From assembly GCA_016875225.1 (NCBI GenBank), contig VGRW01000019.1, positions 1 to 51,688 on the forward strand: a DNA stretch of 51,688 bases. Direction: 5' to 3'. Positions 44,853-49,054 of this stretch are shown piece after piece. Numbering within the stretch: position 1 is the stretch's first letter; each line of letters begins with the position of its first letter. The DNA is from Deltaproteobacteria bacterium. GTDB taxonomy: Bacteria; Myxococcota_A; UBA9160; SZUA-336. Both the position numbers and the translations under genes were made by a program. The notes beneath the pieces are model-generated. The model was not told the origin of the DNA and did no database searches. It was given only the letters and a program-made list of their open reading frames with translations.

Positions 44853-45284
44853 ATGTCCACGACTCCGCCACGAGAGCCGCGCCGGGCTCGCCCCGTGCCC
44901 ACACCCGAGACGCAGTTCCATTGGGACGGCGCTCGCGCCGGCGAGCTGCGGCTCCAGCGCTGCCGCCCGTGCCAGCGCGCGTACTTCCCGCCGCGCCCCT
45001 TCTGCCCGCGCTGCGCGAGCCGCGACGTCGAGATCGTGCGCGCGAGCGGCCGCGCGACGCTGTACAGCTACGTGATCCACCACCGGCCGGTGCCGGGATT
45101 CACGGCGCCCTACGCGATCGCCGTGGTTGCGCTCGAAGAGGGCCCGCGAATGATGACCAGCCTGGTCGGCCTGCCGCAGACGCCGGAGGCGCTGGTTCTC
45201 GACATGCCACTCGAGGTCTCGTTCCAGAAGCTCGACGACGAGATCTCGCTTCCCGTCTTCGGGCCCGCGGGGAGCGGATCGTGA
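44853..45284 (+). CDS. DUF35 zinc ribbon/OB-fold protein, thiolase partner
   Basis: This 143-residue protein has a rubredoxin-like zinc ribbon with Cys37/Cys40 (RCRPC) and Cys51/Cys54 (FCPRC), then an OB fold with ATLYSYVIHHRPVPGF, APYAIAVVALEEGPRMM and MPLEVSFQKL. DUF35 proteins pair with thiolase-like enzymes, such as the Ltp2 aldolase of steroid side-chain degradation and HMG-CoA synthase-like enzymes, and shape the active-site channel. It overlaps the thiolase gene by 4 bases (GTGA), which supports a complex. Confidence 0.9.
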   Translation: MSTTPPREPRRARPVPTPETQFHWDGARAGELRLQRCRPCQRAYFPPRPFCPRCASRDVEIVRASGRATLYSYVIHHRPVPGFTAPYAIAVVALEEGPRMMTSLVGLPQTPEALVLDMPLEVSFQKLDDEISLPVFGPAGSGS

Positions 45285-46423
45285 GGCGCCGCGCGGTCGC
45301 GATCGTCGGAGCCGCCGAGACCACCGCGCTCGGCGTGATTCCCCATCTCTCTCAGATCGGCCTGCACGCCGACGCCGCGCTGAACGCGCTCGCGGATTGC
45401 GGGCTCGCCCCGAGCGACGTCGACGGCATCGCGACCGCGGGCGAGTCGCCGACCGCGATCGCGCTGGCGCTCGGGATCACCCCGACCTGGGTCGACGGCA
45501 CCGCCGTGGGCGGCTGCTCGTTCATGCTGCACGTTCGCCACGCGGCGGCCGCGATCGAGGCGGGGCTGTGCAAGACGGTGCTGATCACGCACGGGCAGAG
45601 CGGCCGCTCGCGCGTCGGCGCCGGGGGCTTCGGCTTCGCGCCGTCGAGCCTGCAGGGGCAGTTCGAGGCGCCGTACGGCATCGCCGGCCCGCCGTCGCTC
45701 TTCACGATCCCGTGCCTTCGCTACATGAAGGACTTCGGTCTCACGCACGAGCAGCTGGCCATGGTCGCGGTGGTGCAGCGCGAGTGGGCCGCGAAGAATC
45801 CGCGCGCGATGCACCGGGACCCGATCGGCGTCGAGGACGTGCTCGCCTCGCGCGTGATCGCCTGGCCGTTCCACCTGCTCGAGTGCTGCCTGGTGACCGA
45901 CGGCGGCGGAGCCCTCGTGCTGGTCTCGGCCGAGCGCGCGCGCGACTTCCGGGAGAAGCCGGTCTTCGTGCTCGGCACCGGCGAGAGCGTCGAGACGCCG
46001 ATGGTCAGCCAGATGGAGGACTTCACCACGTCGCGCGCGTTTCGCGTCTCGGGCCGGATGGCGTTCGCCGAAGCGGGGATCGGCCCGCGCGAGGTGGATC
46101 ACCTGATGATCTACGACGCGTTCGCACACCTGCCCATCTACGGGCTGGAGGACCTCGGTTTCGTGCCACGCGGCGAGGCCGGCCGGTACATCTGGGATCG
46201 GAACACCGCCCCGGGCGGAGAGCTGCCGCTGAACACCAACGGCGGCGGGCTCTCCTACACGCACACGGGCATGTACGGGATGTTCGCGCTGCAGGAGTCC
46301 GTGCGTCAGCTGCGCGGCAGGGCGGCGGCACAGGTTCCCGACGTGCACGTCTCGGTGGCGCACGGCGTGGGCGGGATGTTCGCGGCGGCGGGAACGGTGA
46401 TTTTGAGCAACGAGCCCGGCTGA
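45281..46423 (+). CDS. thiolase-superfamily protein of the SCPx/Ltp2 type
   Basis: This 380-residue thiolase-fold protein starts VRRRAVAIVGAAETT. It shows VDGTAVGGCSFMLHVRHAAAAIEAG with Cys79, VVQREWAAKNPRAMHRDPI, CLVTDGGGALVLV, and the C-terminal GGELPLNTNGGGLSYTHTGMYG with SVAHGVGGMFAAAGTVIL. This is the Ltp/SCPx branch, often a retro-aldolase rather than a true thiolase. GTG 45281 is coupled to the DUF35 gene. A C-C cleavage step in breakdown of a branched or steroid-like acyl-CoA is likely. The exact chemistry cannot be read from sequence. Confidence 0.87.
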   Translation: MRRRAVAIVGAAETTALGVIPHLSQIGLHADAALNALADCGLAPSDVDGIATAGESPTAIALALGITPTWVDGTAVGGCSFMLHVRHAAAAIEAGLCKTVLITHGQSGRSRVGAGGFGFAPSSLQGQFEAPYGIAGPPSLFTIPCLRYMKDFGLTHEQLAMVAVVQREWAAKNPRAMHRDPIGVEDVLASRVIAWPFHLLECCLVTDGGGALVLVSAERARDFREKPVFVLGTGESVETPMVSQMEDFTTSRAFRVSGRMAFAEAGIGPREVDHLMIYDAFAHLPIYGLEDLGFVPRGEAGRYIWDRNTAPGGELPLNTNGGGLSYTHTGMYGMFALQESVRQLRGRAAAQVPDVHVSVAHGVGGMFAAAGTVILSNEPG

Positions 46424-46484
46424 GGCGCGCGGGAGTTTTGTTAGGATCAGCCGGTCCGTGTCGCAAGATCACTGGGAGGTTGGT

Positions 46485-46592
46485 GTGTCAGACTTCGCAA
46501 GAATGATCGAGATAGGCGTCGTAGTCGTGGTGGTCACCGTCGCGGTGGTCTGGGCCGTCGTCGGAGCCATAAAGACCCGTCGCGGAGCCTGA
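46485..46592 (+). CDS. 35-residue single-helix membrane peptide
   Basis: A short reading frame starts at GTG 46485, five bases after a strong GGGAGG (46474-46479), and stops at TGA 46590. The product begins VSDFARMIEIG and has a hydrophobic helix of about 20 residues rich in Val (about 10-29), then a basic end KTRRGA. This is the layout of a small inner-membrane protein with the C-terminus inside. It lies 61 bases after the thiolase stop and 3 bases before the stop of the convergent CoA transferase. TAGGAT (46442-46447) is a possible -10 box. No family is recognised. Confidence 0.6.
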   Translation: MSDFARMIEIGVVVVVVTVAVVWAVVGAIKTRRGA

Positions 46593-46595
46593 CGC

Positions 46596-48977
46596 CTACA
46601 CGCAGACGTCGTCTGCGACGAGGGTCGCGACCTCGGCCGGCTCGATCCCGAGCCAGCGCCCGAGCACGTCCTCGGTGTCGGCGCCGAGCAGCGGCGACGC
46701 TCCCGCGGTGACGTTGGGGGTGCGGCTCGGACGCACCGGGTTGCCGATGTGCCGCTCGGGGCCGATCTCTGCGTGCGTCACCGTGACGATCGCACCGCGC
46801 GCGGCCAGGTGCGGATCGGCGCGCGTGTCGTCCGGGCTCTGGACGATGTGCGCGGAGATTGCGGCCGCCTGGAGCGACTCCGCGACGTCCTCCGCCCGGC
46901 GCGACGCGGTCCACTCCGAGACCCGCGCGTCGATCTCGTCCCGTGCGGCGAGCCGGAGCTCGAGCGTGGAGAGCCGCGCGGCGTCGACCCAGCCGGCCAC
47001 CGCGCAGAACCGCCGCCACTCCTCGTCGCTCGCGACGGCGAGCGCCACCCAGCGGTCCTCGCCCTCGCAGCGATAGACGCCGTGGGGAACGGCCCAGTCC
47101 ACCGCGTTGCCGCGCTGGCGCGCGGGCCGTCCGGTGCACGGGCCCTCCAGGTAGAGCTCGCCGAGCAGGAACGCCGCCGCCTCCGTCTGCGCCATCTCGA
47201 TCCGCTGGCCCACCCCGGAACGGCGCCGGTGCTCGAGCGCCGCGAGCACACCGAGCGCGGCGAGCTTGCTCGCGATGTGGTCGGGGTGGTTGAGTGAGGA
47301 TCCCGCCGGGTACGGCGCCTGCGGGTGGTTCCAGAGCCAGTTCACTCCGGAGAAGGACGAGTTCAGCGGGCCGAACGCCTGCGCGCGGCCGAGCGGGCCG
47401 CCTTCACCGAAGCCCTGCGACTGCACGTAGATCACGCGCGGGTTCACGCGGCGCACGCTCTCGTAGTCGAGGCCCCATTTCTCGCACACGCCCCCGCGGT
47501 TGTTCTCGACGATCACGTCGGCGCGGCGGCACAGCTCGAAGGCGATCTCGCGTCCGCGTGTGCCGCGCAGGTCGAGACACACGCTCTTCTGCCCGCGGCA
47601 CTCGGTGTTGAACGTCCAGGCGCGGTTTACGGCGCCGGGCTCCAGCGTGACCGCGCGCAGGAAGTCCAGGTTCGCCCGCGACTCGATCTTGATCACCTCG
47701 GCGCCGAGCTCGGCCAGCGCCCAACAGGCTTCCGGGCCCACCGCGCCGACGCCGAGGTCCACCACACGGACGCCGGCAAGCAGCGGGCCGCTAGCTGCGG
47801 CCGCCGGTCCGGGCGCCACGGCGGCGCGCGGCGCGAAGCCGGTCCGATCGTCCTCCCCGGGCGCGGGCGCCGGGCGGCGCAGCGTCGCGGGCGTCTCGGA
47901 GAAGTTGAGCGCGAGCGGCGCAAACGGCGCGGCGCCGAGCTTCGGGAAGCCGGTGCTGCGAAAGAAGCCGCGCTCGCGGGTCTGCTCCTCGCGCACGAAG
48001 TCCTCGGGCGGATTCACCGGCGCGAGCGGCGTGCCCAGCCGGCACGCCTCGGCGAGCAGGTCCGCGCGCTTGCGCTCGCGCAGCGCGTCGCAGGCGATGA
48101 TGCGCAGCACGTCGGCGTTGAGCATGCGGACCGCCGGCTGCTCCCATTCCGGGCCCATCAGCACCTCGGGTCGGCCGAGCAGCTCGAGGAACGCGCGCCA
48201 GTGGCGCACGGTGCCGGGCAGGACGCGCACGTGCCCATCGGCCGCCTCCAGCACCAGATAGGTGCCGTCCGCGTTTCGCGGCGGCGCCTTGGGCAGGATC
48301 GGGTAGCGGCGCGCGTAGTCCTCGAGCGGAACGGACCACGGGTTCATCCCGTGCAGCGCGGCCTCCTGCACCGACACCTCGACGGTCTGTCCCTCTCCGT
48401 GGCGCGCGCGGTCGAGCAGCGCCGCCACCGCGCCGAGCGCGGCGTAGATCGAGGCGCAGTCGTGCGCGGCATAGCCCGGCAGCGCGCACGGCGGCAGCTC
48501 CGGAAAGCCGCACGGATGCAGCGCTCCGGACGCCGCGAAGGCGACCAGCGGCTCGGCGCGCCAGCTCGCGCGCGGGCCGCTGAGCCCGAAGTCACCCACC
48601 GCCACGTGCACCAGCTCCGGGTGCCGCGCGCGCACGGCCGCAGGCTCGAGCCCAAGCCGGGCGCGGCGCTCGGGCGAGAAGTTCTCGATCAAGAGGTCCG
48701 CCCCATCACAGAGCTGTGTCAGTCGCTCCCGCCCGGAGGAGGACCCGAGGTCGATCACCGCGCCGCGCTTGTTCGCGTTGCGGAACAGGAACGGCAGGGA
48801 GCCGTCCGGCGCCGCCTCGTCGCCCGCGAACGGGGGCACGAGCCGGCCGGGGTCGCCGCCGGGGGGCTCGACCTTGATCACGTCGGCGCCGAGGTCCGCG
48901 AGCATTCGCCCGGCGAGCGCGCCCCGGATGTCGGTCAGGTCGACGACTCGAACGTGCGAGAGCGGAGGGGCGGTCAC
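46596..48977 (-). CDS. fused double-domain family III CoA transferase
   Basis: This is a 793-residue protein with two family III CoA transferase units in tandem: about 1-368 (starting VTAPPLSHVRVVDLTD) and about 399-793 (starting LLAGVRVVDLGVGAVGPEACWAL). They are joined by a linker rich in Ala and Pro. The C-terminal unit keeps the catalytic Asp at the expected site (Asp566 in NHPDHIAS, ten residues before the ALG glycine). In the N-terminal unit this position is His172, with Asp173 one residue off. GTG 48977 gives a clean domain start; ATG 49049 is possible. It follows two acyl-CoA dehydrogenase genes on the same strand. Confidence 0.88.
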   Translation of the reverse strand: MTAPPLSHVRVVDLTDIRGALAGRMLADLGADVIKVEPPGGDPGRLVPPFAGDEAAPDGSLPFLFRNANKRGAVIDLGSSSGRERLTQLCDGADLLIENFSPERRARLGLEPAAVRARHPELVHVAVGDFGLSGPRASWRAEPLVAFAASGALHPCGFPELPPCALPGYAAHDCASIYAALGAVAALLDRARHGEGQTVEVSVQEAALHGMNPWSVPLEDYARRYPILPKAPPRNADGTYLVLEAADGHVRVLPGTVRHWRAFLELLGRPEVLMGPEWEQPAVRMLNADVLRIIACDALRERKRADLLAEACRLGTPLAPVNPPEDFVREEQTRERGFFRSTGFPKLGAAPFAPLALNFSETPATLRRPAPAPGEDDRTGFAPRAAVAPGPAAAASGPLLAGVRVVDLGVGAVGPEACWALAELGAEVIKIESRANLDFLRAVTLEPGAVNRAWTFNTECRGQKSVCLDLRGTRGREIAFELCRRADVIVENNRGGVCEKWGLDYESVRRVNPRVIYVQSQGFGEGGPLGRAQAFGPLNSSFSGVNWLWNHPQAPYPAGSSLNHPDHIASKLAALGVLAALEHRRRSGVGQRIEMAQTEAAAFLLGELYLEGPCTGRPARQRGNAVDWAVPHGVYRCEGEDRWVALAVASDEEWRRFCAVAGWVDAARLSTLELRLAARDEIDARVSEWTASRRAEDVAESLQAAAISAHIVQSPDDTRADPHLAARGAIVTVTHAEIGPERHIGNPVRPSRTPNVTAGASPLLGADTEDVLGRWLGIEPAEVATLVADDVCV

Positions 48978-48986
48978 GCGCCCGAT

Positions 48987-49004
48987 CGTACGCGAGCGCG
49001 TACG
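48987..49004. repeat. perfect 8-base inverted repeat before the CoA transferase gene
   Basis: CGTACGCG (48987-48994) and CGCGTACG (48997-49004) are exact complements around a two-base centre. The site is 10 bases upstream of the chosen GTG 48977 and about 50 bases beyond the end of the acyl-CoA dehydrogenase gene. It could be an operator or a small hairpin. If the earlier ATG 49049 is used, it lies inside coding sequence. Confidence 0.4.
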
Positions 49005-49054
49005 GGCGAGGCGAGCAGGTTTTTCGCTTCCCGGCCGGGCCGGAGACACGGGTC

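What the first reader, a model, noticed from the sequence alone, without database searches (positions are those of the whole stretch)
46485..46592. Unannotated 35-residue membrane peptide gene
A short frame has a strong GGGAGG five bases before its GTG, a single Val-rich transmembrane helix and a basic C-terminal tail. It fills the gap between a thiolase gene and a convergent CoA transferase gene almost exactly. Gene finders normally skip frames of this size. Small single-helix proteins often regulate a larger membrane enzyme.
Basis: seen in the sequence. Interest (0 to 1): 0.6.

Follow-up and report, generated by a model that had tools for sequence, protein, structure and literature searches.

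The report
Small single-helix membrane protein gene
The overlooked 35-residue frame is very probably a real gene for a tiny one-helix membrane protein; three other bacteria of the same class carry it at unrelated places in their genomes, so it is an accessory gene not tied to its thiolase neighbour, and its function is still untested.

Summary
The frame at 46485-46592 is as described: GGGAGG, 5 nt, GTG, 35 codons, TGA. It is the only short frame in the window, on either strand, with both a strong ribosome site and a transmembrane segment. It is very probably a real gene. Intact, indel-free homologues occur in three other genomes of the same class (69%, 52% and about 46% identity), each 34-36 residues with its own start region. 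Three of the four share a leader (GCATCCA..TC..GATYGGRGG) found nowhere else in 91 genomes. Against the nearest homologue, changes are mostly synonymous (P about 0.0004 against a neutral model). The four neighbourhoods share nothing consistent. The thiolase is kept in the family but followed by a different gene each time, and every carrier has a congener without a detectable copy. So the coding claim holds and the link to the Ltp2-like gene fails. I describe it as a patchy, stand-alone accessory gene for one membrane helix with a basic tail, probably inside. No match in Pfam, NCBIfam, PHROGs, PADLOC, Rfam or PDB. The likeliest mechanism is helix-helix binding to an unlinked membrane protein; a type I toxin-like peptide is the main rival. 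Fst/Ldr membership is excluded (no proline motif).

The parts
46485..46592 (+). Small membrane protein gene, 35 codons, GTG start, TGA stop
   Evidence: Translation; homologues in G033, G066, G087; codon-level conservation against G033; AlphaFold2 single helix
46474..46480 (+). Ribosome binding site GGGAGG(T), 5 nt before the GTG counting from GGGAGG
   Evidence: Sequence; G-rich site at the same place in the three homologues
46424..46484 (+). Leader between thiolase stop and the start codon; the window copy lacks the GCATCCA element that the other three share
   Evidence: Alignment; pattern search of 91 genomes; blastn places G033-G066 similarity at -45 to +100, but window-G033 similarity only inside the frame
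46500..46571 (+). Transmembrane helix, about residues 6-29; invariant R6, E9, V17, G27, and R32 just after it
   Evidence: Alignment, hydropathy, model
45281..46423 (+). Thiolase-like gene (Thiolase_C_1), upstream neighbour; conserved in the family without the small gene
   Evidence: Pfam PF22691, E 8.5e-57; relatives
46596..49049 (-). Convergent gene, two family III CoA-transferase domains in one 817-residue frame
   Evidence: Pfam PF02515, E 9.7e-170, two stretches

Best explanation
The frame is a real, translated, stand-alone gene for a 35-residue single-pass inner-membrane protein of a small accessory family found so far only in this class. Shown: the intact frame, the ribosome site, homologues of 34-36 residues in three other genomes with no indels between them, mostly synonymous change against the closest one, and unrelated gene neighbourhoods. 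Inferred: the helix inserts with its basic tail (KTRRGA) in the cytoplasm, and an interface carrying the invariant R6, E9, G27 and R32 packs against the membrane part of a larger protein encoded elsewhere, changing its stability or activity, in the way AcrZ or CydX act on their partners. The gene is gained and lost as a unit, so the partner is probably a widespread membrane protein whose function it tunes and does not require.
For: Homology: window protein finds G033 at E 1.8e-9 and G066 at 4.8e-5 in a search of 98 genomes. Leave-one-out profiles, run on each copy's own contig region with Z set to 150,000 frames, give 9e-12, 6e-13, 1e-10 and 0.0018. DNA similarity window-G033 is 85% over 61 bases inside the frame, E 7.6e-16, and ends before the stop. 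Codon-position differences window-G033 are 9, 5 and 17 at positions 1, 2 and 3; NG86 dN 0.24, dS 1.02; 21 of 32 residues kept with 30 base changes, neutral simulation mean 14.1, P 0.0004, and 41% of simulated copies held a stop. A shared leader pattern occurs at three of the four copies and nowhere else in 91 genomes. Helix model. Only frame of its type in the window. Precedent for small membrane proteins acting through an unlinked partner: AcrZ on AcrB (PMC7267776).
Against: No experiment shows translation. For window-G066 the neutral test is marginal (P 0.048) and for G033-G066 not significant (P 0.20); homologues found by protein search are also biased towards kept residues. The copy uses codons that are rare in its neighbours and has GC3 74% against 92%. 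Nothing identifies a partner. A toxin-like peptide would share most of this anatomy.
Confidence: 0.45

Rival explanations
1. It is a type I toxin-like peptide: a short hydrophobic helix with a cationic, cytoplasmic C-terminus that perturbs the membrane when over-made and is held down by an antisense RNA.
For: Size under 60 residues, one helix and cationic C-terminal residues are the shared features of membrane type I toxins (PMC8309996). Intergenic, monocistronic placing, patchy occurrence with congeners lacking it, unrelated neighbourhoods, off-typical codon use and an IS66 transposase remnant beside the G066 copy fit a gene that moves and is lost.
Against: No sigma-70 promoter-like site was found on either strand, so there is no sign of an antisense RNA, though the scan is weak for this GC-rich organism. 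No Rfam match, no PADLOC match, no hit in plasmids with the window protein or in phages with the G033 protein. No unusual leader folding. Fst/Ldr motif absent. Only one copy per genome.
Confidence: 0.28
2. It is an obligate small subunit or assembly factor of a respiratory or transport complex, in the manner of CydX, CcoS, CcmD or KdpF.
For: Length and one-helix anatomy fit. The G066 copy has a weak, sub-threshold CcmD match (E 0.045) and the G033 copy a weak FeoB-associated match (E 0.11).
Against: All such matches are far below curated cut-offs and differ between members. No such complex is next to any copy. An obligate subunit should not be missing from congeners of every carrier.
Confidence: 0.12
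3. It is not a gene: a chance open frame or a decaying copy between two convergent genes.
For: GC-rich DNA holds many long spurious frames; rare codons and lower GC3 in the window copy; not detected in the same-genus genome.
Against: Frame-true homologues in three families of the class, without indels or stops, each with its own start region, and synonymous excess against the closest.
Confidence: 0.06

Closest known systems
AcrZ, MgtS, YohP type small membrane proteins (trans-acting)
   Same: Under 50 residues, one helix, stand-alone gene, not detectably catalytic
   Different: No profile or structure match found here; partner unknown; different taxa
CydX, CcoS, CcmD, KdpF (small subunits or assembly factors)
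   Same: Size, one helix
   Different: Those are linked to their complexes; this gene has no consistent neighbour and only sub-threshold, inconsistent matches
Fst/Ldr family type I toxins (LdrD is 35 residues)
   Same: Length, N-terminal short charged stretch, one helix, cationic tail
   Different: The PxxxG motif described for Fst/Ldr (PMC8309996) is absent: no copy has a proline; no antisense RNA evidence
Catalogued smORFs (GMSC, PMC11364881; sORFdb, PMC11796252)
   Same: Unannotated frames under 100 codons, the general kind
   Different: Those catalogues could not be searched here, so this family may already be listed without a function

Membership tests
Protein-coding small membrane protein gene | Frame conserved in relatives without indels or stops | tested here: met
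   Four copies, 34-36 residues, gap-free over the core
Protein-coding small membrane protein gene | Excess of synonymous over non-synonymous change | tested here: met
   Met for window-G033 (P 0.0004); marginal for window-G066 (0.048); not significant for G033-G066 (0.20)
Protein-coding small membrane protein gene | Ribosome binding site at the right spacing | tested here: met
   GGGAGG with 5 nt spacing; G-rich sites at the same place in the homologues
Protein-coding small membrane protein gene | Detected translation product | not testable with these tools
   No expression data available
Fst/Ldr type I toxin family | PxxxG motif in the helix | tested here: not met
   No proline in any of the four proteins; motif definition from PMC8309996
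Type I toxin-antitoxin system (any) | Antisense RNA antitoxin overlapping the toxin mRNA | tested here: inconclusive
   No promoter-like site or Rfam family found, but the scans are weak for this organism
Type I toxin-antitoxin system (any) | Growth arrest on over-expression | not testable with these tools
   Needs an experiment
CcmD / FeoB-associated / Flp families | Pfam match above the curated cut-off | tested here: not met
   12-14 bits against cut-offs of 25.6-32.2
Thiolase-linked (Ltp2 operon) accessory protein | Conserved adjacency to the thiolase gene | tested here: not met
   Thiolase neighbours differ in every relative and the peptide is absent there; homologues lie elsewhere

The most novel reading that the evidence does not exclude
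A previously undescribed, class-restricted family of 35-residue single-helix membrane proteins that moves between unrelated loci as a leader-plus-frame unit, possibly a new type I toxin-like or stress module in a phylum where few are known.
Probability: 0.25. Interest if true: 0.55.

Novelty: new member of a known kind. Interest (0 to 1): 0.35.

Why it matters
It shows that a 35-codon gene can be verified from raw sequence plus relatives, and adds an undescribed small membrane protein family in a poorly studied, mostly uncultured class. Its patchy, unlinked spread makes a specific question testable: is this a membrane-protein tuner or a mobile toxin-like peptide? It does not overturn anything known.

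Tried and rejected
Link to the thiolase/CoA-transferase genes: rejected. Known family: no match in Pfam, NCBIfam, PADLOC or PHROGs above cut-offs, PDB best E 1.8 to an unrelated protein, Rfam none. Mobile carriers: no hit in plasmids (window protein), phages (G033 protein) or viral contigs (alignment). Weaker peptide hits (for example G010, G222, G033:C37) lie inside frames of larger proteins or antisense frames, so treated as chance. Leader as a structured RNA or ribosome-site lock: no folding beyond shuffles, z between -0.6 and 0.85; a GGATGC/GCATCC hairpin is possible in G033 and G087 but not in G066 or the window. Two scans of named genomes gave only G066 itself, a record titled Deltaproteobacteria bacterium Meg19_02_Bin_77; these scans depend on short peptide patterns and would miss divergent copies. 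Phylum-wide sample of 379 genomes gave no copy outside the class, nor did another class of 71 genomes.

Full report
What is there. At 46474-46592 the window reads GGGAGG, TTGGT, GTG, 34 further codons and TGA. The product is VSDFARMIEIGVVVVVVTVAVVWAVVGAIKTRRGA. The thiolase gene upstream ends at 46423 and the convergent CoA-transferase gene ends at 46596, so the frame almost fills the gap, as reported. Among all frames of 25-60 codons in the window, on both strands, this is the only one with a GGAGG-type ribosome site and a 19-residue segment of mean hydropathy of at least 1.9. AlphaFold2 gives one confident helix over residues 2-34 (mean pLDDT 91.6).

Is it a gene? Searching 98 genomes of relatives with the peptide gave G033 (69% identity, E 1.8e-9), G066 (52%, E 4.8e-5) and, weakly, G087 (47%, E 0.33). 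All three are short frames in intergenic DNA with a start codon at the same place (GTG, TTG, ATG) and 34-36 residues; the four align without internal gaps, with R6, E9, V17, G27 and R32 invariant. Profiles that leave out the tested copy, run on that copy's own contig region with the search size set to 150,000 frames, give 9e-12, 6e-13, 1e-10 and, for G087, 0.0018. G087 is therefore the weakest by sequence, but it shares a leader, GCATCCAN(4-5)TCNNNGATYGGRGG, with G033 and G066; a relaxed version of that pattern occurs at exactly these three places in 91 genomes and never in the reversed control. The pattern was drawn from these copies, so this shows specificity and a shared leader, not an independent discovery. 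The window copy has lost or never had the GCATCCA element.

Selection. Window against G033: 30 base differences in 32 codons, 21 residues kept; a neutral simulation keeps 14.1 on average (P 0.0004), and 41% of simulated copies acquire a stop. Differences by codon position are 9, 5 and 17, and NG86 gives dN 0.24, dS 1.02. For window-G066 the test is marginal (P 0.048), and for G033-G066 it is not significant (P 0.20). Copies were found by protein similarity, which favours kept residues, so the P values are somewhat flattering. DNA similarity between window and G033 is confined to the frame.

Where it sits. The four neighbourhoods differ: thiolase and CoA-transferase in the window; a glyoxalase-family gene and a TauE/SafE exporter in G033; an acyl-CoA dehydrogenase, an IS66 transposase remnant and a gene ending in a PEP-CTERM-like tail in G066; a PEP-CTERM protein and a DUF998 gene in G087. 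In the window's own family the thiolase is present in most genomes, but the gene after it differs each time: in the same-genus genome similarity stops within a base or two of the thiolase stop. Each carrier has at least one congener with no detectable copy (G001, G022, G024, G077, G086). Where flanks can be matched, they are found without the small gene: the G066 dehydrogenase has an 88-91% identical counterpart in G086, with similarity ending just outside it and a different gene upstream; the G087 DUF998 gene has a 79% counterpart in G022, with similarity starting just after the small gene. The window copy uses several codons that are nearly absent from its neighbours (ATA, AGA, GTA) and has GC3 74% against 92%. 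Together this is the picture of an accessory gene that is gained and lost, possibly by transfer. It is not a component of the thiolase operon.

How it may work. The helix with a basic tail suggests tail-in topology by the positive-inside rule (established knowledge, not tested). The conserved R6/E9 pair at the outer end and G27/R32 at the inner end suggest a specific packing face (inference). I prefer binding to an unlinked membrane protein (0.45) over a type I toxin-like peptide (0.28), because the sequence is specifically conserved, no antisense RNA sign was found and no plasmid or phage copy was found. The margin is small, because patchy spread and anatomy fit a toxin-like peptide equally well.

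Known families. No match above cut-off in Pfam, NCBIfam, PADLOC, PHROGs, Rfam or PDB. Fst/Ldr toxins are defined by a PxxxG motif (PMC8309996), which is not met. Small membrane proteins as a kind are well known (PMC10903887, PMC4325964, PMC7267776), and global smORF catalogues exist (PMC11364881, PMC11796252), which could not be searched here. So this is a new family of a known kind.

Verdict. Observation confirmed; the coding interpretation is supported at about 0.93; the regulator interpretation is possible but without a partner; the thiolase link is not supported. Interest is modest.

Noticed in passing
46596-49049: The convergent gene encodes two family III CoA-transferase domains in one 817-residue protein.
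   Followed up: no
45281-45284: The OB-fold (ChsH2-like) gene and the thiolase gene overlap by GTGA, which suggests translational coupling of a ChsH2-Ltp2-like pair.
   Followed up: partly
45281-46423 and relatives L046-L052: The thiolase gene is conserved across the family, but a different gene follows it in nearly every genome, with similarity ending at or just before the stop codon.
   Followed up: partly
L043:3574-3795 (-): Remnant of an IS66 transposase C-terminus just downstream of the G066 copy; near-identical stretches (83-84%) occur twice in G061.
   Followed up: partly
G033, G066, G087 leaders: A shared leader GCATCCA..TC..GATYGGRGG upstream of the start codon that the window copy lacks; its role (promoter, operator or untranslated region) is unknown.
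   Followed up: partly
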